DNA of 42,037 bases from Psittacicella melopsittaci (GTDB lineage Bacteria; Pseudomonadota; Gammaproteobacteria; Enterobacterales; Psittacicellaceae): NCBI RefSeq assembly GCF_003585925.1, contig NZ_NRJH01000054.1, positions 1-42,037 of the forward strand. Direction: 5' to 3'. Under the pieces are notes generated by a model, which did not search any database, had not been told where the DNA came from, and saw nothing but the letters and a program-made list of their open reading frames with translations. Shown piece after piece: positions 6,733 through 26,223 of this stretch; position 1 is the first letter of the stretch; each line of letters begins with the position of its first letter. The translations under genes were made by a program, and so were the position numbers.

Positions 6733-7560
6733 ATGAATAAAACGAATATAAAAACCAATAGGTTTTTTACTGGTTTGAGTTGCTTTGTCGATGCGATAAA
6801 AAATTGGCGTGTCTCGGCAATAGTTATGTTGTTTACGATCATAGCTATACATGTCTACCAACAAGCTCATGCAAGTATAGAAATTCCAACCCTTAGTGCT
6901 GTTCTAGCTATAGCTTTAGGTACGGGATTTATCATTGCTTTAGGTTTTGTTTTAGGGATTTACACCGCCCTAAAAATGGACAAGACTCTTAGCGAACCTA
7001 TTAACGACCTCTATAATAAGCCTAGTAAAGGCAAAGTTTTTAACCAAAGTTTTTACGCAGCCTTTAAAGACATGTATTTTTTAGGCAAATCTTTATTACT
7101 TTTTTGGTTAGGAACTACCTTTATTGTTTTAAACGACCAATTATATAACCCGAATATTTTTCCAAGTTATGACCTTTTTGTGGTGGTAACGGCAATTATT
7201 CACTTTATACTTCTATTTTATGTATTCCCTGTCGCAGGCTTTATGATTAATAAAAGAGTGTACGGGATTGAAGTTTATAAAAGTTATAAAGATTTTTCAA
7301 AATTTGCTTTAACCAACATAATTAGTATTATCATTAGTTATGTTTTATTTATCGTTATAATATTTGTTGTTATCCTAGCATTAGTACAAGTTATATTTAC
7401 TCTTGAAAGTAAGGATAATTCAGGAATTTACTTATATCTTTCCTTTTATCTCTCACTTTCAATAATTTTAGTACTTATAATTAATGTATACTTTGTCTTT
7501 TTACAAGTATTAATCCAAAGAAAATATAACCAAAGAATTAGTTCTTATCGCCATGAATAA
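6733..7560 (+). CDS. Polytopic inner-membrane protein, unknown family
   Basis: This 275-residue protein has about six hydrophobic segments, near residues 27-47, 52-80, 113-128, 142-167, 192-221 and 232-262, separated by short charged loops. There is no cleavable signal peptide and no motif I recognise. It starts three bases after rsmI and overlaps the next membrane-protein gene by eight bases, so it is probably translated from the same message. Its position ahead of yciB, where E. coli has yciC, and its length and topology suggest a diverged YciC-like (UPF0259-type) protein. That is inference from context, not from clear sequence similarity. Confidence 0.75.
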   Translation: MNKTNIKTNRFFTGLSCFVDAIKNWRVSAIVMLFTIIAIHVYQQAHASIEIPTLSAVLAIALGTGFIIALGFVLGIYTALKMDKTLSEPINDLYNKPSKGKVFNQSFYAAFKDMYFLGKSLLLFWLGTTFIVLNDQLYNPNIFPSYDLFVVVTAIIHFILLFYVFPVAGFMINKRVYGIEVYKSYKDFSKFALTNIISIIISYVLFIVIIFVVILALVQVIFTLESKDNSGIYLYLSFYLSLSIILVLIINVYFVFLQVLIQRKYNQRISSYRHE

Positions 7561-8473
7561 TTCATTAAACAATCCAGTCACGCGACCAAATGTAGTATTT
7601 TTTGCTTTAAGATTTTTTAAGCACAATTGGCAAGTTTTAACGACTGTATTTTTACTTAACATTACAGTTTTATACCTTTTTAATCATATTTTTGAAAGTA
7701 TTTTTCCCCAATTAACCCTAAATCTTACCACTACTAATACCGATGACCTTTCTGCTCTAGCAGTTATGGATCGTCTTAATGTAGTTAACATTAGCTGGTT
7801 ATTTATAAAAACTTTTGTAGAATTTTTCACTATTGCCGTAGTTACCTTAATTTTAAAGTCTATTCTCGATATAGTTATTGAAAAAAATAACAACATTCCT
7901 GTAACCGAAATTAAAGACTTACAATCGGGTATTGGCGTTAAAAGCTTACTCGTAGGTTTTCTTCCCGTAGTTTTTTCGGCACCTATGCTCAAACTAGCTT
8001 TATTAGCTATATGGCGTAGTTTTCAATTTATTATAATTCTGCTGTTAATTGCCGTTCTCGTTAACATTCTTCTCTTTAGTTTAGGAGGTGGGGTAGTTGC
8101 AGTTACTTATATTATCTTTAGACTTTTTAGTATACTAATTCCTTTAGTTGTAACTATTTTAGTTGTATTTAGACAATACTCATTTTCTGACTATCTTGGT
8201 GATTTAAAAAACCTCTTCACCAAACGCGGTGCAGATCTATTTAACTGTATAATATTTATTGTTTTTACCCTTGTTTTAACGCCAACTCTTATGATCGCTA
8301 TAGTTGCGTTTACTAATGTTATAGGTCAGGCTTTAAATATACTTGCAGTAACGAATTTTCTAAATACTTTAGTTGCAAGCTATTTAACAGGATTTTTCTC
8401 TGATTTATATCTTGTTGTAGTCTTTATAATGGTATTTTTCTACTTTGAGAGTAAAGAAACTGATTCGAAGTAA
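7553..8473 (+). CDS. Polytopic inner-membrane protein, possibly YciC-like
   Basis: A 306-residue, very hydrophobic protein with about six membrane segments. A short N-terminal stretch, RFFKHNWQVLTTVFLL, precedes the first, which resembles the N-terminal layout of E. coli YciC (FFRNQFMTILLVSLL). A small polar domain (residues about 105-130) follows the second segment. Its ATG lies eight bases inside the end of the previous gene, indicating translational coupling. With its neighbours it forms a block of membrane proteins of similar design upstream of yciB. The exact family is not established. Confidence 0.75.
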   Translation: MNNSLNNPVTRPNVVFFALRFFKHNWQVLTTVFLLNITVLYLFNHIFESIFPQLTLNLTTTNTDDLSALAVMDRLNVVNISWLFIKTFVEFFTIAVVTLILKSILDIVIEKNNNIPVTEIKDLQSGIGVKSLLVGFLPVVFSAPMLKLALLAIWRSFQFIIILLLIAVLVNILLFSLGGGVVAVTYIIFRLFSILIPLVVTILVVFRQYSFSDYLGDLKNLFTKRGADLFNCIIFIVFTLVLTPTLMIAIVAFTNVIGQALNILAVTNFLNTLVASYLTGFFSDLYLVVVFIMVFFYFESKETDSK

Positions 8474-8499
8474 AAAAATCAATTAACTTTTGCTGAAAT

Positions 8500-9759
8500 A
8501 TGAAGTACAATCCCTTAACCATTGCCCATAAGTTTATTACAAAGAACTTTCCTCTCTTATTTGCAGTAAGCTTTTTTCTTGGCATTTTTTATTATTTTGT
8601 TGATCTAATTTTAGATTATTTTATTCCTGTACATCTTTCTTTAACAGGGATGAATAATTTTTTAGCTCTTTACTTCAATAACTTAGCCTACTTAAATATA
8701 GGTCTAGTGTTTGGCTTTTTTCTTAAACTAATTATAGCTTCTTTATTTACGGCGTTAATTTTTACCGTATTAGTACGCTTTTTAAATATAGATCTCAAAC
8801 AAATTTTAGTTAAGTACCGCCAATCACCTGAACAGCTCCAAAATACGGCAAATTATAAATCTAAATTCACGCCACGTTTAGTGCTAAATTTTATCTACAA
8901 TTTAGGTAAATTAAGTTTTGCTAAAACATATTTAAGAGTTCTGAGCGGTTTATTAGTTTTTGCTTTAGCTAGCTTTGCTCTTTCTTTACCTTTAATTGGT
9001 ATAGTTAAAGCTGTTTATGCAAGTAGTATTGCTAGTGTGATTTTTGCTTTAATTGCAATTATTATTCTAATTCTTAATGCTGGAATCTATGTGCCATGGT
9101 TAGGTATTTCAGTAACCTCTAAATCGGCAAAAGTTCGCGACTTATTTATTTTAAGTTCTTCTATTTTTAGCCAATTTTTCTTTGTTGTGCTAATTTTTCT
9201 GGTTAACTACTTTGTTATTTCAGTAGTCCTAGAGTTTGCTTTTATCGCTATTAGATCTATTGCCGAATTTATTCGTTTAGGTCTAGCCGGTGACTTTTTA
9301 GTATATGCTCTAGTGGTTTTAAAATATGTCTATCTTGTTGTCTTCTCTATTGCTTTATATTTTGTCTATATTAGCTTTAAAGACAAAAGTGAAGTTGAAA
9401 ATCTAGTTAGTGAAGGTATATATATTCAAGACTTTAATATTGCCAAAACTACTACTGCTCGCTACACAAAACGTATTACCAATACGCTAAATTATCAAAC
9501 TAACAATGATAGTAAAGTAAATTACGGTGCTGTGAGCAAAAGCAAAGCTGAACCTGAGAAAAAATCAGAAGATGTGGATTTAGCTCATTTGAGTTCAGAA
9601 AAGAAAAAATCTAAATCTGGATTTTTTGCTAACCTCTTTAAACGTAAAGCAAAAGTTTCACAAAGTACATTTGAACATGTAGATAATGCTCAAGTTCAAT
9701 TTGATAGTGATAAAATAACTCCAGATAATAATCCTTTTGATCTTGAAAATAAAAAGTAA
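8500..9759 (+). CDS. Polytopic inner-membrane protein with charged cytoplasmic tail
   Basis: A 419-residue protein. The first 295 or so residues hold about six membrane segments, beginning with the N-terminal pattern ITKNFPLLFAVSFFLGIFYY, similar in layout to the two upstream genes. The last 120 residues are polar, rich in Lys, Ser, Asp and Glu (SSEKKKSKSGFFANLFKRK, then an acidic, Asn-rich end), and are probably cytoplasmic and disordered. The stop overlaps the yciB start by one base (TAATG), so the two genes are translationally coupled. It occupies the position of yciC in the E. coli yciC-yciB order; no catalytic motif is visible. Confidence 0.75.
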   Translation: MKYNPLTIAHKFITKNFPLLFAVSFFLGIFYYFVDLILDYFIPVHLSLTGMNNFLALYFNNLAYLNIGLVFGFFLKLIIASLFTALIFTVLVRFLNIDLKQILVKYRQSPEQLQNTANYKSKFTPRLVLNFIYNLGKLSFAKTYLRVLSGLLVFALASFALSLPLIGIVKAVYASSIASVIFALIAIIILILNAGIYVPWLGISVTSKSAKVRDLFILSSSIFSQFFFVVLIFLVNYFVISVVLEFAFIAIRSIAEFIRLGLAGDFLVYALVVLKYVYLVVFSIALYFVYISFKDKSEVENLVSEGIYIQDFNIAKTTTARYTKRITNTLNYQTNNDSKVNYGAVSKSKAEPEKKSEDVDLAHLSSEKKKSKSGFFANLFKRKAKVSQSTFEHVDNAQVQFDSDKITPDNNPFDLENKK

Positions 9760-10328
9760 TGAATATAAAAAAAACTATCACCTCTTGTATGGAGTTTGCA
9801 GGATTAGTAGTATTCTTTCTCATCTATAAACTAGCTCCAGAAGAGTATGCTTTAAGAGCTGCTTCAGTATTTCTTTTAATTTTTTCCATTTTTCAAATTT
9901 GGTACTTTAAATGGCAAAAATTAAAAATTCCGCGCTCAATGCTCTTTATAAATGGTCTCAGCATTCTTTTTGCTATCCCAACCATTTATTTTAACGACTT
10001 TCAATACATCCGTATCAAACTACTAATTATTAAGGCTCTATTTTTTATTATTCCTTTTACTTTTGCTCTCTTTGGCAAAAACTTCCAACAAATTTTATTT
10101 GGAGATTTGGCTGGACTTAAAGAATTAACCGACCATGAATTTAAGGTAGTTAACTGGTGGTTCATTATTGTCTCTGCTGTAAGCTTACTTATTACAATTT
10201 ACGCTTACTTTAATCTTTCAGATGATGCTTTCTTAGAGTTAAAAACCTTCTGGTTACCACTAGTTGGAGCTTTATACATAGTTCCAGTATTCTATTATTT
10301 AGCAAAGAAAGAAAACTTAAAAATGTAA
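9759..10328 (+). CDS. yciB: YciB/IspZ family inner-membrane protein, copy 1
   Basis: YciB (intracellular septation protein A) is a five-segment inner-membrane protein that affects envelope integrity and interacts with cell elongation and division proteins in E. coli. This 189-residue protein shows the family layout: an N-terminal FAGLVVFFLIYKLAPEEYAL, the signature around residues 73-90 (IYFNDFQYIRIKLLIIKALF, compare FFHNDEFIKWKVTVIYALF in E. coli), and a C-terminal ELKTFWLPLVGALYIVPVFYY. The start codon overlaps the preceding stop. A second, more diverged copy lies 1.2 kb downstream. Confidence 0.88.
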   Translation: MNIKKTITSCMEFAGLVVFFLIYKLAPEEYALRAASVFLLIFSIFQIWYFKWQKLKIPRSMLFINGLSILFAIPTIYFNDFQYIRIKLLIIKALFFIIPFTFALFGKNFQQILFGDLAGLKELTDHEFKVVNWWFIIVSAVSLLITIYAYFNLSDDAFLELKTFWLPLVGALYIVPVFYYLAKKENLKM

Positions 10329-10334
10329 GGGTCT

Positions 10335-11111
10335 ATGATTACTAAATTTCTCTTAAATAATATTGCGAATATACTCTTTTTTCTGGTACTTTTCTTGACT
10401 TTATATACAGATCAAGCTGTATTATACGCAGGAACCATTTATGTTTTGGTTAACGTTTGTGTCTTAACCTTTAGACTAATGGTTGAACAAGGCTTATGGC
10501 GTAACCGCCTATTTTTACTGCAACAAATTGTTTATAACGCAACTATGGGCTTATCGGCACATGAGAATGATATTACTTACTTTGCCGTAGGGATTGCGGT
10601 ATATCATGCTCTTATTACCTTTGCTTGCTGGTGGTTACAACGTCGTGGCGAGTATTTTGTAGAACGCTATGAACCTCATTATCTTTACCCAATTGCTCGT
10701 CTCGAAGCTATGGGCATAGAGATTCAAAAAGAAAATAGAAGATCTACAGTTAAAGCAGTAAACGAACTCTACTTACGTAATTCTTTTGTTTTAAGCTGCC
10801 TGTACGTGGTAATTTTACCTGCGACAAATTTAAGTTCACAGTCTTGGTATGTACTTTGGGCATTTATTTTTGTTCCTATTTGTAACTGGTACCTCATAGC
10901 TAATTTAACAGTTAAGGTATTTAGCTACTTTAAGGGTAATTTAGGAGTTAATTTCGAGGAAACTATTAAGCAAATGCAAGCAAAAACTCAAGCAGAATTT
11001 GCTAAACAAAATGAAATGGATCCTGAACTTGCTGCTAAAGTAGAAGACCTTAAAGAATACATTGAGAATAAAGTAAAAGAGCAAGAAAAAGGTCAAGACA
11101 AAGACAAATAA
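10335..11111 (+). CDS. Membrane protein of unknown function
   Basis: A 258-residue protein with about five hydrophobic segments (near residues 5-25, 30-50, 82-102, 148-166 and 172-196). The loop between the third and fourth contains a polar stretch with RRGEYFVERYEPHYLYPIARLE. The last 55 residues are highly charged and probably helical (QMQAKTQAEFAKQNEMDPELAAKVEDLKEYIENKVKEQEK). It sits six bases after yciB and ends at a strong terminator, so it closes the rsmI-to-yciB transcription unit. In E. coli the gene after yciB is the soluble thioesterase yciA; this protein is not related to it. No family recognised. Confidence 0.75.
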   Translation: MITKFLLNNIANILFFLVLFLTLYTDQAVLYAGTIYVLVNVCVLTFRLMVEQGLWRNRLFLLQQIVYNATMGLSAHENDITYFAVGIAVYHALITFACWWLQRRGEYFVERYEPHYLYPIARLEAMGIEIQKENRRSTVKAVNELYLRNSFVLSCLYVVILPATNLSSQSWYVLWAFIFVPICNWYLIANLTVKVFSYFKGNLGVNFEETIKQMQAKTQAEFAKQNEMDPELAAKVEDLKEYIENKVKEQEKGQDKDK

Positions 11112-11117
11112 ATAAAC

Positions 11118-11148
11118 AAAAAAAGACCTCATCTCGGGGTCTTTTTTT
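11118..11148 (+). terminator. Rho-independent terminator of the yciB cluster
   Basis: A 13-bp stem (A-run plus GACCTC pairing with GGGGTC plus T-run, one T-G pair) with an ATCTC loop starts 6 bases after the stop of the 258-residue gene. The flanking A and T runs are typical of an intrinsic terminator. Confidence 0.9.
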
Positions 11149-11149
11149 A

Positions 11150-11155
11150 TATAAT
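11150..11155 (+). promoter_or_regulatory. Probable -10 element for yciI-yciB2
   Basis: A TATAAT immediately follows the preceding terminator and lies 24 bases ahead of the yciI ATG. The leader would be very short and includes a strong ribosome binding site GGAGGT at 11170-11175. No clear -35 box. Confidence 0.45.
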
Positions 11156-11178
11156 AGAATAAATTAATTGGAGGTACA

Positions 11179-11487
11179 ATGTCATTAAATTATTATGTAA
11201 TTTTTTCTACAGATCATGAGAATGTGCTAGAAAAAAGATTAGCTGCACGTCCAGACCACTTAGCTCGTTTACAAGAACTTAAAGATCAAGGACGTCTATT
11301 AGTAGCTGGTCCTAATCCTAAATCAGATGCAGACCCAAAAACTACTGGCTTTGCTGGCTCGACTGTAATTGCCCAATTTGCTTCGCTTGAAGAAGCACAA
11401 CAATGGGCAGACCAAGATCCTTATCTAGCCGCAGGTGTTTATAAATCTGTAGAAGTAAGACCTTATATTGTCGTTTTTGAAAAATAA
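11179..11487 (+). CDS. yciI: YciI family protein
   Basis: A 102-residue ferredoxin-fold protein of the YciI family, whose biochemical role is still unclear. Similarity to E. coli and Haemophilus YciI is strong: [63 protein letters not shown] and the C-terminal [10 protein letters not shown]. The conserved His (RPDHL) and Asp (ADQDPY) of the family are present. It has a GGAGGT ribosome binding site. yciI clusters with yciA and yciB in other gammaproteobacteria; here it is followed after 28 bases by a second yciB. Confidence 0.95.
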
Positions 11488-11515
11488 TAAACAATAAATC
11501 ACTCTAGTTATAAAT

Positions 11516-12070
11516 ATGTTATCTATTCTTCTCTCTACCTTATCAGGACTGATATTCTGTATCGTATACTTTATGTCACCTCGAGAAGTGGCTGCAGAAT
11601 ATTCAGCAATTGCTTTAACTATAGCTTTAGTTATAGAAGTATTGATTAAAAACTTTTTCATTAAAAAATTGACGCCTTTTGCATGGTTTATGTATGTCAT
11701 AATTCTTTGCTTTACCATTCCGTCAATTATCTTTAATGATATTAAATATATTCAAATTAAGTTCTATCTCTTTAAAGTAATTTTCATATTTGCAATTATA
11801 ATTCTAATGCATAAGTTTAATGTGAACATTATGCAAAAGGTTTTTGGTTGGCTAATTAAAGGAGTTAGCGAGCATGGTTGGTTTGTAATTAACTATATGT
11901 TCGTTGTCTACCTAGTTATTGCTGTCCTCGGAGCACTATACAGCCAATATGCCATTTCCCAAGAAGCATGGGTATTATTTAAAGGAGTAATCTTACCTGT
12001 AATTGGTGGCGTGGCTACTTTAATAATGATAGCCTATGGCTTTTATGACGCAAGAAAAACTAAAAAATAG
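11516..12070 (+). CDS. YciB/IspZ family inner-membrane protein, diverged copy 2
   Basis: A 184-residue membrane protein that follows the YciB plan: N-terminal LIFCIVYFMSPREVAAEYSA, then the signature block around residues 66-80 (IIFNDIKYIQIKFYLFKVIF), which aligns with IYFNDFQYIRIKLLIIKALF of copy 1, and a C-terminal AWVLFKGVILPVIGG matching NFKVFGLTAL in E. coli. It is clearly paralogous to the gene at 9759-10328 but the two have drifted far apart. It is probably co-transcribed with yciI, and its stop codon lies in the terminator stem. Confidence 0.8.
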   Translation: MLSILLSTLSGLIFCIVYFMSPREVAAEYSAIALTIALVIEVLIKNFFIKKLTPFAWFMYVIILCFTIPSIIFNDIKYIQIKFYLFKVIFIFAIIILMHKFNVNIMQKVFGWLIKGVSEHGWFVINYMFVVYLVIAVLGALYSQYAISQEAWVLFKGVILPVIGGVATLIMIAYGFYDARKTKK

Positions 12071-21188: not shown

Positions 21189-24014
21189 ATGCAAACAAAA
21201 CCAGCTGATTTTTTTAACAGACTATTTAAATTCCCAGGTATAAGTGTTTGCTTAAATATGGAACTTAAGCATAATCTGCTCGTCCATCAAGCAATTAATA
21301 GCCTTGTGGCTAATATTCACTTTAAAATGGGAGTGGAGAATTATTGGAATAGTTATTACTATGCCAATCGCTGGTGGTCAAATAATGCAATTAAAGTCGA
21401 CTCGGACCAACCCCAGCAAACGCTGGGGTATTTTTATGAGAACAGACCTCATAACCCCTTAGTTGACTTTAAAAATGAAGCAATAATGCTAAAAGCTGAT
21501 GATCCATCAGATGATGATTATAATGACATAGATAATCCGCGCCAAAGGCTCTTAGATAAGCAAGTTGGGATAAATTCATTACTTTATTGGTCAAATAACT
21601 ATAATACTTTTATTTCCAGCTATTTAAGTAGCAATAGTCCTTATTTAGAGAGCTTTTATAATCCTGAGATTCGCTTTGTAGTAAATAAACTCCAAGGCAT
21701 GCTCGCTAATCATTATTTTGTTAATGTACCACAGAAAAACCGAGCATTTAGTGATCTATGTCAATACAGGGTTAAACAAATTTTAGAACCTGAAATTTCC
21801 CAAGAAACAAAAGAAGCAAGGGAACAACAACGCAAACAACAAAAACTAAAAGGGAAATTCATTTACTCGAGTGTTGAAAGCATTATTTTGGCACTAGATA
21901 AGCAAAGTCAAAAAAATCTCTTTGAGCCAGATTTTGCTCAAGCTTTATTAAACCTTATTAAAGCCTATGCGACGTTTAGCGAGAAAAAAGTTTTCTATAA
22001 TGTTCGTCAAGAAGATTTAAATGCCAAGGCACAAGAGTACTTTGACAAGCACCAAGTCGACTTGTATAGCTTTAGTGAGTATATTCCTGCCCCTGTAGAG
22101 TTTATTCAAGCCGAGCAGTACCAAAGCTATGCCCCTATTACTTTAGATACACCAAGTTTATTATTTAGCGATTATTTTAATGCGGTAGAGTTTATCTTTA
22201 GGGTTGGAGCTAAAGCTTTATTAAGCCAAGGGCAAAATAAATACCCAGCTTTAAAAGAATTACAGCTTAATACCTTTGAAACTAATACAGGGGTATTTAA
22301 AATTATTAATTTCTTACCAATTTTTGGTTATGAAACAAATTACTTTGCTGATAACAAGGTTAGACTAAACTTTACGCACTTTGTTCCTTATGAAAGAGAT
22401 CTTATCAATGCCTTAGCCAAAGAACAAGCTATTCTTGACGAAGTTCAATTTTATGAACAAGAGTATAGACAAGCCTATTTAAGTGAACTTGATCTAAGTG
22501 TTCCGCAAGCAAGTAAATATACTGACTTAATGGCAAATACTTTAGCTTCATATCTCATTGACTATTATCTTGCTTTTACTCCAGGCCTTAGCTTTTTATA
22601 TAAAAAGTTTGCTGCTATAGATAATCGTCGTGAGGTTTATTCTAATAAGTCCTACGGGGTTTCTAGAGATATTGAACTAGAGCTCCCAGAGTTTAAAGTG
22701 CAAAGCTATGAGTCTTATTTAGCTAAGGCAAAAGAAGGTCAAGAAAGTAAAACTAGCCCATCTTCTTATAACTTTAATTTAGATGATTTAAACTTTTTGC
22801 GTAATTTTGCTAATCCAGGGCAATCAATAGTTGATACTTTTAAAAAAGCAGGCATTGACTATACAAATATAAGTAGTGTTCCTGCTAATTTTGTCCTCGA
22901 GAGTATAAGCAATTTAGAAGAAAAAATAGCTCAGGTACTCGAGCATACCTCTTATTATGATACCTTTGTACGCCCACAAAGTACGCCAGCTAAATACTTA
23001 GCAATTACTTGCCTAACAAAATTAGCTCCCGAAGCAACACAAATTATTGCTCCTTTAGGTCAGCAAGATTACTTAGTAAAAAAATTGCCTAAGTTTACCC
23101 GACGTGATTATGCTTTTATTAGAGATGCACAAAATATTATTCTTGAGGGGCAAGTTAAATCACGTCAACCTACGTTAATTAATAAAGTACCTGTAAGCTT
23201 TTTAACTCGCAAAGCAAATATAAGTGCTTTAAGCACTGTCGCTGATTTGTCTGTACAAGCTTTAGATCTCTTTTTAAATCAACGCAGATACGCTAAATAT
23301 GAAGATCCTTCAGATCCTCTGCCAAATGTAGTATTTATTGAGGACGTAGTAAGCTTTTTACTCCATTCAATGCCTAAAGTTGATTATCATTATGATTTTA
23401 ACTTTCTCCGTCAGTTTTATACTGCTCTGATTGCTCAAAATCGCTATAGTGAAAATCCTTTTGAATTAATTAAGCTTGTAGCTTGTGAGTATCAAGAAAA
23501 ACTTGATAATTTCTACGAGCAATTAAATAAAGTTTATGATCATCTTTTAAGCTTAGTGAATGAGTTCAATATTCATGTAGTAATGAATTTTAACTTAACT
23601 AGTGTTGCTCAAGCCTTTGGTTTAAAGCCTGGAGAACTATGGCATAAACTTAAAGATAATAAATTTATCTTCTTGCAGTTTAGTTATAGTCACGACTCTT
23701 ACCTTGATTTGCCTGAGGACACAGATGAACAAATTCTCGAAAAAGAGTTCTTTAAAGAAGTTTCACCAGACTTTACTATTGAGCAAGATCCGCAACTTTA
23801 TCTTACATCTTTACAAAATACTAATGATGAGTTTACGGTATCATGCCTAAGCGAGCTTTTTGAAGAGGACTTTTCTAAGCTCTTACGTGTGCAAGGGACG
23901 TTAAAAATTACCATTAATAGTCAACTGTCCTCACTATTGGCAGGACTCAAATTCGAAGAAAAAGAGATGTATCTAAAATACGCTCCTTTTAGTCGCCAAA
24001 TCCAGTTTAGCTGA
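21189..24014 (+). CDS. Large protein of unknown family between dnaB and alr
   Basis: A 941-residue open frame begins three bases after the dnaB stop and ends inside a strong terminator. The protein is rich in Tyr, Phe, Asn, Gln and Leu and has no signal peptide, membrane segment, nucleotide-binding loop or cysteine pattern that I recognise. An acidic patch (DDPSDDDYNDIDN) lies near residue 100 and a Lys/Gln-rich helix (KEAREQQRKQQKLKGK) near residue 203. It looks like a soluble, mostly helical cytoplasmic protein. Base composition and codon use look like those of its neighbours. A terminator-like hairpin sits 220 bases into the frame, so full expression with dnaB is uncertain. The true start could be downstream; the ATG used is the first after dnaB. 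Confidence 0.7.
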   Translation: MQTKPADFFNRLFKFPGISVCLNMELKHNLLVHQAINSLVANIHFKMGVENYWNSYYYANRWWSNNAIKVDSDQPQQTLGYFYENRPHNPLVDFKNEAIMLKADDPSDDDYNDIDNPRQRLLDKQVGINSLLYWSNNYNTFISSYLSSNSPYLESFYNPEIRFVVNKLQGMLANHYFVNVPQKNRAFSDLCQYRVKQILEPEISQETKEAREQQRKQQKLKGKFIYSSVESIILALDKQSQKNLFEPDFAQALLNLIKAYATFSEKKVFYNVRQEDLNAKAQEYFDKHQVDLYSFSEYIPAPVEFIQAEQYQSYAPITLDTPSLLFSDYFNAVEFIFRVGAKALLSQGQNKYPALKELQLNTFETNTGVFKIINFLPIFGYETNYFADNKVRLNFTHFVPYERDLINALAKEQAILDEVQFYEQEYRQAYLSELDLSVPQASKYTDLMANTLASYLIDYYLAFTPGLSFLYKKFAAIDNRREVYSNKSYGVSRDIELELPEFKVQSYESYLAKAKEGQESKTSPSSYNFNLDDLNFLRNFANPGQSIVDTFKKAGIDYTNISSVPANFVLESISNLEEKIAQVLEHTSYYDTFVRPQSTPAKYLAITCLTKLAPEATQIIAPLGQQDYLVKKLPKFTRRDYAFIRDAQNIILEGQVKSRQPTLINKVPVSFLTRKANISALSTVADLSVQALDLFLNQRRYAKYEDPSDPLPNVVFIEDVVSFLLHSMPKVDYHYDFNFLRQFYTALIAQNRYSENPFELIKLVACEYQEKLDNFYEQLNKVYDHLLSLVNEFNIHVVMNFNLTSVAQAFGLKPGELWHKLKDNKFIFLQFSYSHDSYLDLPEDTDEQILEKEFFKEVSPDFTIEQDPQLYLTSLQNTNDEFTVSCLSELFEEDFSKLLRVQGTLKITINSQLSSLLAGLKFEEKEMYLKYAPFSRQIQFS
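21410..21429 (+). terminator. Terminator-like hairpin inside the 941-residue gene
   Basis: ACCCCAGC (21410-21417) pairs perfectly with GCTGGGGT (21422-21429) around an AAAC loop and is followed by ATTTTT. It is the most GC-rich hairpin in this AT-rich region and lies 224 bases past the dnaB stop. Confidence 0.55.
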
Positions 24015-24026
24015 CCTCGGTCAGCT
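24009..24026 (+). terminator. Rho-independent terminator before alr
   Basis: AGCTGAC pairs with GTCAGCT around a CTCG tetraloop, followed by seven T. The stem contains the stop codon of the 941-residue gene. The end of the T-run is 13 bases from the -10 element of the alr pair. Confidence 0.92.
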
Positions 24027-24044
24027 TTTTTTACGTAAAAGTGG

Positions 24045-24050
24045 TATAAT
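24045..24050 (+). promoter_or_regulatory. Probable -10 element for the alr pair
   Basis: A TATAAT lies 66 bases before the first alr ATG, just after a terminator. Expected transcription starts near 24057, at the foot of an 8-bp hairpin: TTTTGAAT (24058-24065) pairing with ATTCAAAA (24075-24082). No good -35 box is visible. Confidence 0.5.
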
Positions 24051-24116: not shown

Positions 24117-25193
24117 ATGAAGTATCCTAAAGCGATTATTGATACAAAAGCTTTAAAACATAATGTTGAGATAATTAGAAAACTGGCACCTAATTCAAAA
24201 ATATGTGCCATAGTTAAAGCAAATGCTTATGGACATGGCCTTATTGATGTTTCACGAACATTATTACGTCAAGTAGAAGGTGTGGGTGTAGCCCGTATAG
24301 CTGAAGCAGAAAGACTAAGAGATGCGGGTATCAACAACGATATTATCTTACTAGAAGGTTTTTTAGGAGCAGCTGAACTATTTAAACTAAATGAACTAAA
24401 ACTTTCTACGGCTGTTCACTGTTATGAACAAGTTGAGCTTATTGAAAAATATGCGAGCAACTTAAGTAATTTAAAAATCTGGTTAAAATTTAATACAGGG
24501 ATGAACCGTCTTGGTTTAGATAAAGATGAAGCCCGTGAGGTTAAAGCAAGACTAGAGAGCTTACCTTGTGTTAAAGAAATTAGCTTAATGACCCATTTTG
24601 CTAATGCTGATGATCCGAGTAGTGATTATACGGAAAAGCAAATTAGCTTTTTTAATAGCCTAAACAGCGAGTTAAATCTTGGCCGCTCTACTAGTGCTTC
24701 TTCGGGAATTCTCTTTTTTCCAGAAACTAGAAGTGAATGGATACGTCCAGGAATTATTATGTACGGTATAAGTCCTAGCCATGAATCTATCGAGAGTTTT
24801 GGTTTTATTCCTGTAATGAGCCTTGAAACTGTGTTAGCTAATGTATTTAAACTAAAAGCTGGGCAATATTTACCTAATAGTCAATTTCAAGCCCAAGAAG
24901 ATACCTATATTGGCGTTTTAGCCTTAGGTAGTAGTGATGGTTATCCCTGTCAAGCTCCACAAGGAACTCCTTTTTTAGTAAATGGTCGTAAAGTAACTCT
25001 CGTAGGCAATGTGGGAGTAGATCATATTTATGTTAATCTTGGCTCAGAGCTTCAAGATAAAATGGGAGATAAGGTTCTAGTATTCGGTAAAGGTTTACCT
25101 GTAGAAGAAGTGGCAAAACATATTAATGTTATTACTTATGAGTTAACCACCAAATTAACTATGCAGATAAAACACGAATACATTATTAACTAA
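24117..25193 (+). CDS. alr: Alanine racemase subunit 1: intact PLP barrel, catalytic tyrosine lost
   Basis: Alanine racemase interconverts L- and D-alanine for peptidoglycan. This 358-residue protein has the complete N-terminal TIM-barrel half of the active site: Lys34 in VKANAYGHG (the PLP Schiff-base lysine), Lys124 and Arg131 in WLKFNTGMNRLG, His160 in MTHFAN, and Arg210 in WIRPGIIMYG. Its C-terminal domain is eroded where it should complete the partner's active site. The universal GYGDGYPR with the catalytic tyrosine reads GSSDGYPC (Ser272), the GYG block after KAG reads LPNSQFQ, and GRVSMD reads GNVGVD (Asn298, Gly300, Val301). A homodimer would lack the tyrosine base in both sites. Alr2, starting 10 bases downstream, has the opposite pattern, so a heterodimer is likely. 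Confidence 0.93.
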   Translation: MKYPKAIIDTKALKHNVEIIRKLAPNSKICAIVKANAYGHGLIDVSRTLLRQVEGVGVARIAEAERLRDAGINNDIILLEGFLGAAELFKLNELKLSTAVHCYEQVELIEKYASNLSNLKIWLKFNTGMNRLGLDKDEAREVKARLESLPCVKEISLMTHFANADDPSSDYTEKQISFFNSLNSELNLGRSTSASSGILFFPETRSEWIRPGIIMYGISPSHESIESFGFIPVMSLETVLANVFKLKAGQYLPNSQFQAQEDTYIGVLALGSSDGYPCQAPQGTPFLVNGRKVTLVGNVGVDHIYVNLGSELQDKMGDKVLVFGKGLPVEEVAKHINVITYELTTKLTMQIKHEYIIN

Positions 25194-25203
25194 GGAATTG
25201 AGC

Positions 25204-26223
25204 ATGAAATACCCAAAAGCGGTAATCAATACAAAAACTCTGCAACATAATATTAGCTTAATTCAAGACCAAAACCCAGATGCTAATATTATTGCGTTAG
25301 TTAATTCTAATGCCTATGGACATGGTATAGTTGAAATTGCCCGTGCCTTAGAAAATACAGTAAGCTCATTTGCGACTACAAGACTCGATGAAGCAGAAAC
25401 TCTTAGAGATAACGGGGTAAATAGTCCTATAATTGTTACCCAAGGCTTTATTAACCTGGTAGAATTATTTAAGATAATTGATTTAAAAGTTCAGGTGGTT
25501 ATAAGTAATCTAGCCCAACTTGAACTTATTAAACAGTATCAAGAGCACCTTTCGGGCTTAAAAATTTGGTTATATCTTAACCAAGGTGGCTTAAGTCCTG
25601 ATGACCTTATTGAAGCCTATATGAGCATTAAAACTATTAAGGCTATTAAAAGCCTAGGGCTAATGGTTGATGAGTTTAATGAACAAGCTCAAAGTGTTAT
25701 TGAGGCCTATCCATTTAACGATATAGCGATAATGGATAACAAGAAAAAATATGATCTAGATACTAATGCCCAAATTTGGATTAGTTCAGGCGTACAATTA
25801 TATGGTTTACAAGCTTCGGACTATAATGTTAATAACCTAATTAGCGTTATGAACCTTGAAACTACTATAGTACAAATCCATCATCGTAAAGCTGGAGATA
25901 AAATCGGCTACGGAAGCATATACACGGTTCCTAAAGATACTTACATAGGTGTAATTGCTATGGGGTATGGAGATGGTTATCCGCGTAATGCTCCAACAGG
26001 CACGCCAGTGTTAGTTAACCGTCGCATAGTCCCTATTGTAGGGCGCGTATCCATGGATATGCTTACGGTTGATCTAGGTAAAGAATTAATTGATAAGGTT
26101 GGGGATAAAGTCTATATTTGGGGAGATAAGCTTAAAATCGAAGATGTAGCCGCTAAGCTGGGAATTTCTGATTATCAATTAACTTCATATCTAACTGAGC
26201 GTGTTAAACATGAATTTAATTAA
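25204..26223 (+). CDS. alr: Alanine racemase subunit 2: PLP lysine lost, catalytic tyrosine domain intact
   Basis: A 339-residue paralogue of the preceding gene (both begin MKYPKA). Its barrel has lost the PLP site: the Schiff-base lysine is Asn34 (VNSNAYGHG), Lys124 is Tyr, Arg131 is Ser131 (WLYLNQGGLS), the His of the THF motif is Asp156 or Glu157, and RPG reads SSG (Ser194). The C-terminal domain is well conserved: IGYGSIY, AMGYGDGYPRNAPTGTPVLVN with catalytic Tyr255, and VGRVSMDM (281-286). Alone it cannot hold PLP in the usual way; paired with subunit 1 it can donate the missing tyrosine. The start chosen is the ATG at 25204 behind AAGGA; an in-frame TTG at 25198 is less likely. The short spacing supports coupled translation. 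Confidence 0.9.
   Translation: MKYPKAVINTKTLQHNISLIQDQNPDANIIALVNSNAYGHGIVEIARALENTVSSFATTRLDEAETLRDNGVNSPIIVTQGFINLVELFKIIDLKVQVVISNLAQLELIKQYQEHLSGLKIWLYLNQGGLSPDDLIEAYMSIKTIKAIKSLGLMVDEFNEQAQSVIEAYPFNDIAIMDNKKKYDLDTNAQIWISSGVQLYGLQASDYNVNNLISVMNLETTIVQIHHRKAGDKIGYGSIYTVPKDTYIGVIAMGYGDGYPRNAPTGTPVLVNRRIVPIVGRVSMDMLTVDLGKELIDKVGDKVYIWGDKLKIEDVAAKLGISDYQLTSYLTERVKHEFN

What the first reader, a model, noticed from the sequence alone, without database searches (positions are those of the whole stretch)
24117..26223. Split alanine racemase: tandem Alr paralogues with complementary active-site losses
Seen: the first gene keeps Lys34 (PLP), Lys124, Arg131, His160 and Arg210 but has Ser272 in place of the catalytic tyrosine (GSSDGYPC for GYGDGYPR), and its partner-facing motifs are eroded (LPNSQFQ for the GYG block, GNVGVD for GRVSMD). 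The second gene has Asn34, Tyr124, Ser131, no THF histidine and Ser194 (SSG for RPG), but keeps Tyr255, IGYGSIY and GRVSMDM. Known: alanine racemase is a head-to-tail dimer in which each active site joins the PLP barrel of one subunit to the tyrosine of the other subunit's C-terminal domain. Inference: neither homodimer can work normally, but a heterodimer has one complete site and one doubly dead site. This is what duplication followed by complementary degeneration would produce. The 10-base gap and the matching N-termini (MKYPKA) support coupled expression and recent shared origin. I know of no described alanine racemase of this kind.
Basis: partly seen in the sequence, partly recalled or inferred. 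Interest (0 to 1): 0.95.

Follow-up and report, generated by a model that had tools for sequence, protein, structure and literature searches.

The report
Alanine racemase split into two partners
The four Psittacicella genomes examined carry two adjacent alanine racemase genes, each lacking catalytic residues that the other keeps, so their D-alanine (a cell-wall building block) is likely made by an obligatory complex of two different proteins with a single working site, instead of the usual pair of identical subunits with two.

Summary
Alr1 (24117-25193) keeps the PLP lysine and the barrel half of the active site. Alr2 (25204-26223) has lost that lysine but keeps the half that one subunit lends to the other. 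Read that way, the loss is complementary in all five non-redundant pairs found: the window, three other Psittacicella genomes and one pair inferred from two metagenome proteins. Both residues are present in 374 of 374 other homologues compared. Alr1 keeps 39 of 40 barrel-side and 3 of 25 partner-side cells; Alr2 keeps 10 of 40 and 25 of 25. Both genes are under purifying selection, and each protein is predicted to fold as a full alanine racemase. Searches of the four genomes found no third alr and no sign of a D-amino-acid transaminase, but a Ddl-domain gene in each. Best explanation: an obligate Alr1-Alr2 heterodimer with one composite active site. Dimerisation and activity are inferred. Four paper searches listed no such enzyme.

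The parts
24009..24026 (+). terminator-like hairpin upstream of alr1, separating it from the dnaB / 941-aa ORF run
   Evidence: 7-pair stem, TTTTTT tail; consensus match only
24042..24050 (+). extended -10-like TGGTATAAT, candidate promoter of alr1-alr2
   Evidence: read directly; not reported by the two-hexamer scan; unproven
24117..25193 (+). alr1: keeps the PLP-binding barrel half; lacks catalytic Tyr and partner-facing residues
24216..24218 (+). Alr1 Lys34 codon (PLP Schiff-base lysine; Bst Lys39)
24744..24746 (+). Alr1 Arg210 codon (contacts PLP pyridine N; Bst Arg219)
24870..24890 (+). Alr1 eroded GYG block (LPNSQFQ): place of the lost catalytic Tyr (E. coli Tyr255, Bst Tyr265')
24930..24932 (+). 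Alr1 Ser272 in place of gate Tyr (E. coli Tyr274, Bst Tyr284')
25017..25019 (+). Alr1 Val301 in place of the conserved Met (E. coli Met303, Bst Met312')
25204..26223 (+). alr2: lacks PLP lysine and most of the barrel half; keeps the complete partner-facing half
25303..25305 (+). Alr2 Asn34 codon in place of the PLP lysine
25783..25785 (+). Alr2 Ser194 in place of Arg219 (Bst)
25909..25911 (+). Alr2 Tyr236 of IGYGS: the catalytic tyrosine predicted to be lent to Alr1
25966..25968 (+). Alr2 Tyr255 of GYGDGYPR: gate tyrosine (E. coli Tyr274)
26053..26055 (+). Alr2 Met284 (E. coli Met303, Bst Met312')

Best explanation
The two adjacent genes carry complementary halves of the alanine racemase active site, and their products likely work only as an Alr1-Alr2 heterodimer with a single composite site. 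Shown: Alr1 keeps the PLP lysine and the rest of the barrel-side set; Alr2 keeps the tyrosine, methionine, arginine and gate residues that in known alanine racemases one subunit lends to the other; each has lost most of the other set. Inferred: the barrel of Alr1 binds PLP, Alr2 inserts Tyr236 and Met284 into that site across the head-to-tail interface, and Lys34(Alr1) and Tyr236(Alr2) act as the two catalytic bases. The reciprocal site (Alr2 barrel plus Alr1 C-terminal domain) would be dead and the two homodimers inactive as racemases. Inferred origin: tandem duplication of an ordinary homodimeric alr, then ratchet-like complementary loss, leaving both genes needed to make D-alanine.
Against: No dimer was predicted or measured; the predictor here takes single chains only. 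No activity data. Genomes are 86-92% complete, so a missing third alr is not strictly excluded, and D-alanine uptake or side activities of other PLP enzymes were not tested. Alr2 keeps NAYGHG with Tyr38 in its dead barrel in 5/5 pairs, which this reading does not explain. In the fifth pair Ser194 of Alr1 is Thr, and its Alr1 keeps Arg300. That P0123 and P0005 are neighbours is inferred from a shared contig length. The tree does not firmly settle whether the duplication came after the split from four intact relatives (support 86/78; the alternative is not rejected, p-AU 0.365). dS is near saturation, so the dN/dS values are rough.
Confidence: 0.85

Rival explanations
1. Alr1 alone is a homodimeric PLP enzyme with a new activity (aldolase- or lyase-like, as tyrosine-less Alr variants are recalled to show), Alr2 only stabilises it, and D-alanine comes from elsewhere.
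For: Alr1 keeps the PLP site and lacks the catalytic Tyr in 5/5 pairs.
Against: Does not explain why Alr2 keeps 25/25 partner-side cells. No third alr found and no Dat-type transaminase seen while a Ddl-domain gene is present. The eroded Alr1 loop has no conserved replacement residue.
Confidence: 0.06
2. Alr2 is a prozyme-like allosteric activator: Alr1 is a weak racemase by itself and Alr2 raises its activity by conformation, without lending catalytic residues.
For: Dead paralogues activate AdoMetDC and DHS in trypanosomes (PMC5201418 abstract; PMC3663545 passages).
Against: Exactly the lent residues are intact in Alr2 (25/25), while its own barrel residues are mostly lost (10/40 kept).
Confidence: 0.05
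3. Both genes are decaying; an ordinary alr missing from the drafts, or external D-alanine, supplies the cell.
For: Draft assemblies of 86-92% completeness.
Against: Both genes are open and under purifying selection in four genomes, and the same two and no third are found in 4 of 4. A third copy would have to be missed four times.
Confidence: 0.03

Closest known systems
Homodimeric alanine racemase Alr/DadX (TIGR00492; E. coli Alr, PDB 2rjg/4wr3; G. stearothermophilus Alr, PDB 1sft)
   Same: Fold, and the full set of active-site residues if the two proteins are pooled
   Different: The residues are divided between two paralogous proteins; known enzymes have two identical subunits and two sites
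Trypanosomatid deoxyhypusine synthase DHSc/DHSp (PMC3663545, passages)
   Same: Two paralogues, one lacking the catalytic Lys, active as a heteromer; in human DHS the active sites lie between monomers
   Different: A different enzyme; DHSc is reported as catalytically functional but grossly impaired, the genes are on different chromosomes; reciprocal loss of the second half-site is not described in the passages seen
Trypanosoma AdoMetDC/prozyme (PMC5201418, abstract)
   Same: A dead paralogue is needed for activity
   Different: Activation is allosteric (relief of autoinhibition), not by lending catalytic residues
Engineered fragmentary alanine racemase of B. stearothermophilus (recalled, not checked)
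   Same: Racemase built from two different chains
   Different: Artificial cut between domains, not two full-length paralogues with complementary losses

Membership tests
Alanine racemase (TIGR00492 / PF01168 + PF00842) | Sequence over the curated family cut-off | tested here: met
   Alr1 337.2 and Alr2 240.6 bits against a cut-off of 168
Alanine racemase (TIGR00492 / PF01168 + PF00842) | Two-domain fold: barrel plus beta C-terminal domain | tested here: met
Alanine racemase, Alr1 as a self-sufficient enzyme | PLP lysine in the barrel | tested here: met
   K34 in 5/5 Alr1
Alanine racemase, Alr1 as a self-sufficient enzyme | Catalytic Tyr (Bst Tyr265') and Met312' in the C-terminal domain | tested here: not met
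   Absent in 5/5 Alr1
Alanine racemase, Alr2 as a self-sufficient enzyme | PLP lysine in the barrel | tested here: not met
   N, N, N, Q, S in 5/5 Alr2
Alanine racemase, Alr2 as a self-sufficient enzyme | Catalytic Tyr and Met312' in the C-terminal domain | tested here: met
   Present in 5/5 Alr2
Alanine racemase, Alr1 + Alr2 pooled | One complete site formed by the Alr1 barrel and the Alr2 C-terminal domain | tested here: met
   At sequence level only, 39/40 and 25/25 cells; not shown in three dimensions
Alanine racemase, Alr1 + Alr2 pooled | Dimer formation and racemase activity | not testable with these tools
   Single-chain predictor only; no assay
Dead-paralogue heteromer (prozyme type) | Catalytically impaired subunit activated by a dead paralogue in a complex | not testable with these tools
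   Sequence pattern fits; needs co-expression
D-amino-acid transaminase route to D-alanine | Dat-type Aminotran_4 protein (TIGR01121) in the genome | tested here: not met
   One PF01063 gene per genome in 4/4; the G000 one scores 459.2 bits as branched-chain aminotransferase and 48.4 against a cut-off of 277.45 for TIGR01121; the other three were only read by eye

The most novel reading that the evidence does not exclude
The first natural obligate heterodimeric alanine racemase: a textbook homodimeric, essential cell-wall enzyme turned by duplication and reciprocal active-site loss into a two-gene, one-site enzyme, fixed across a genus, with progressive erosion visible between species (gate Tyr274 lost in three Psittacicella Alr1, kept in P. 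hinzii 111 and in the metagenome pair).
Probability: 0.8. Interest if true: 0.85.

Novelty: new variant of a known kind. Interest (0 to 1): 0.8.

Why it matters
Alanine racemase is a standard example of a homodimer with shared active sites and a drug target. A natural lineage in which the two halves of the shared site have been divided between two genes would be an unusually clean case of subfunctionalisation by complementary loss within one active site: each step maps to a named catalytic residue, and intact close relatives (P0006, P0007, P0008, P0124) show the likely ancestral state. It makes the ratchet idea (neutral loss locking paralogues into an obligate heteromer) directly testable with a simple rescue assay. 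It also warns annotation pipelines: both genes score above the alr cut-off, and the source names seen call both members 'alanine racemase' in nearly all cases (one NCBI name reads 'hypothetical protein'), yet neither is predicted to work alone.

Tried and rejected
Rejected: recent duplication (the paralogues are 41-43% identical). Rejected: the third Ala_racemase_N hit as a spare racemase (it is a YggS-family protein). Lead that ended: L061, a Clostridia MAG with Gln at the PLP lysine, found in the genome-contig scan. Its genome shows a single PF00842 gene, otherwise intact by eye, so it may be a sequence error or a lone dead Alr; not followed further, and not part of the 374 comparison proteins. 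The order-wide PF00842 survey (377 of 394 genomes with a match, some with two or three) could not be used to exclude other tandem pairs, because its match list was cut off; I make no claim that Psittacicella is the only lineage. The genome-contig scan used two short peptide patterns from Alr2 only (43 stretches matched, 4 distinct loci confirmed), so Lys losses in other sequence contexts would be missed. Heterodimer prediction was not possible with a single-chain predictor.

Counting choices: 13 of the 17 residues tabulated were counted. Left out before the count: A163, D164 and I212 (barrel side, less conserved elsewhere; Alr1 keeps 5/5, 5/5, 4/5 and Alr2 0/5 each) and D304 (partner side, kept in 10/10). 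In the eroded Alr2 barrel the two MAFFT runs disagree: P0005 at H159 and R129 (gap and Y, H and S) and G003 Alr2 at S194 (S, gap). The total is 10 of 40 by either table. Redundant copies P0001, P0002, P0003, P0004, P0009, P0121 and P0122 were left out of the counts; P0003/P0122 (99% identical to the window pair) show the same pattern, except Lys where the window's Alr1 has Asn at the R300 position. The 374 comparison proteins (370 distinct) are the best hits of three searches plus relatives of the order, with many near relatives of each other and some genes present twice.

Paper searches with no relevant hit in the listings: alanine racemase + heterodimer (25 of 52 papers listed), alanine racemase + pseudoenzyme (3 papers), alanine racemase + paralog + inactive subunit (none), alanine racemase + alr1 + alr2 + homodimer (none). 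The library is open-licence PMC only.

Full report
What is there. Two genes lie head to tail: alr1 (24117-25193, 358 aa) and alr2 (ATG 25204 to 26223, 339 aa), 10 bases apart, between a 941-aa ORF downstream of dnaB and a pgi-like gene (dnaB and pgi named by eye). A terminator-like hairpin lies upstream at 24009-24026, and none was found on this strand between the two genes. Both score above the curated cut-off of TIGR00492 (337.2 and 240.6 against 168 bits).

Where it comes from. The window's genome (2.29 Mb, 91% complete) has three genomes of the same genus in the collection, G001-G003. The genus is therefore Psittacicella (Pasteurellales, Psittacicellaceae). By elimination the window may be P. 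melopsittaci; this is an inference.

Correcting the residue map. [quoted passage not shown] PMC3485190, passages). Barrel side: Lys39, Tyr43, Arg136, Ser204, Arg219, Tyr354 (Bst numbers). Partner side: Tyr265', Tyr284', Arg290', Met312' and Arg309, which is printed without a prime in PMC3245724 but whose M. tuberculosis counterpart Arg316' is primed in PMC3485190. PDB 4wr3 is titled Y274F alanine racemase and has F at that place, so it is E. coli Tyr274, the counterpart of Bst Tyr284'. The catalytic Tyr is 19 residues earlier, in VGYGG (E. coli Tyr255, counted). In Alr1 that block is LPNSQFQ and the Tyr column is a gap; in Alr2 it is IGYGS, intact. The Bst-to-E. coli equivalences were made by alignment, offset and recall.

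The pattern across species. All three other genus genomes carry the same adjacent pair; taking the MKYPKA/MRYPKA start, the genes are 0, 10 and 8 bases apart in G001, G002 and G003 by the coordinates. The protein database gave a fifth pair, P0123 and P0005, each listed on one contig of 16408 bases; that they share that contig is inferred from its length. Counting 8 barrel-side and 5 partner-side residues in five pairs: Alr1 keeps 39/40 and 3/25; Alr2 keeps 10/40 and 25/25. In 374 other homologues (370 distinct) K34, Y38, K122, R129, S194, R209, Y255, Y274 and M303 are present in all; H159 and Y343 in 373; R280 in 370; R300 in 345. Changed in all five pairs in both alignments: K34, R129 and R209 in Alr2; Y255, R280 and M303 in Alr1; none in the predicted live site. 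S194 and H159 of Alr2 are changed in all five in one of the two alignments only. Replacements vary between species, so no substitute catalytic residue stands out.

Erosion is graded. P. hinzii 111 and P0123 keep the gate Tyr274 in Alr1; the other three have S, T, T. P0123 alone keeps Arg at 300.

Selection and origin. Synonymous sites are nearly saturated. Whole-gene dN/dS is 0.05-0.15 for alr1 (5 of 6 comparisons, one saturated) and 0.08-0.31 for alr2 (6 of 6). The Alr2 barrel is the fast part (mean pairwise identity 0.50 against 0.72 for Alr1), while the C-domains are alike (0.70 and 0.67). Trees of 61 and 30 rows put all five Alr1 in one clade and all five Alr2 in another, 100/99 each, and all ten with four intact relatives (P0006, P0007, P0008, P0124) apart from other Alr, 100/100. 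Whether the ten form a clade without the four is not settled (86/78; alternative p-AU 0.365). One duplication in this lineage explains the data.

Need for D-alanine. TIGR00492 finds only these two genes in 4 of 4 genus genomes (the third row of G001 is a second piece of its alr2); the third N-domain hit in the window's genome is YggS-type. Each genome has one PF01063 gene; the one from G000 is a branched-chain aminotransferase and the others look like it by eye. A PF07478 (Ddl) match of 188 bits or more is present in 4/4, next to a MurC-like ORF by eye. D-alanine uptake and promiscuous enzymes were not tested.

Mechanism. The data point to an Alr1-Alr2 heterodimer with one working site: Lys34 of Alr1 carrying PLP, Tyr236 of Alr2 as the opposite base. 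Complex formation, PLP binding and activity are inferred. Nearest precedents are the trypanosomatid heteromers of DHS (PMC3663545, passages) and AdoMetDC (PMC5201418, abstract and outline). The DHS case is the closer one, because sites of that enzyme also lie between monomers and one paralogue lacks the catalytic Lys.

Novelty. Four searches of the open-licence library listed no heterodimeric alanine racemase (listings only). I rate it a new variant of a known kind.

Noticed in passing
21189-24014 (+): A 941-aa ORF between dnaB and alr1 has no Pfam match at E 0.1; open frames of 1003 and 1117 aa lie at the same place in G001 (L034) and G003 (L036), much diverged by eye. In E. coli dnaB and alr are recalled to be neighbours.
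   Followed up: partly
25309-25326 (Alr2): Alr2 keeps NAYGHG (with Tyr38) close after the lost PLP lysine in 5/5 pairs, although most of its PLP site is gone; a structural or interface role is possible.
   Followed up: no
L061:2986-4044: A Clostridia MAG alanine racemase has Gln at the PLP lysine (VQANAYGHG) with the rest apparently intact by eye; it is the only PF00842 gene found in that genome.
   Followed up: partly
L035:64-1934: In P. gerlachiana alr1 is preceded by a divergent efp-like gene instead of dnaB and the 941-aa type ORF, so the upstream context differs while the alr1-alr2-pgi order is kept.
   Followed up: no
6733-12070 (+): A run of hydrophobic ORFs of 184-419 aa around a small YciI-like ORF (name recalled; 11179-11487). 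Of three scanned against Pfam, two had only sub-threshold matches and one had none.
   Followed up: partly
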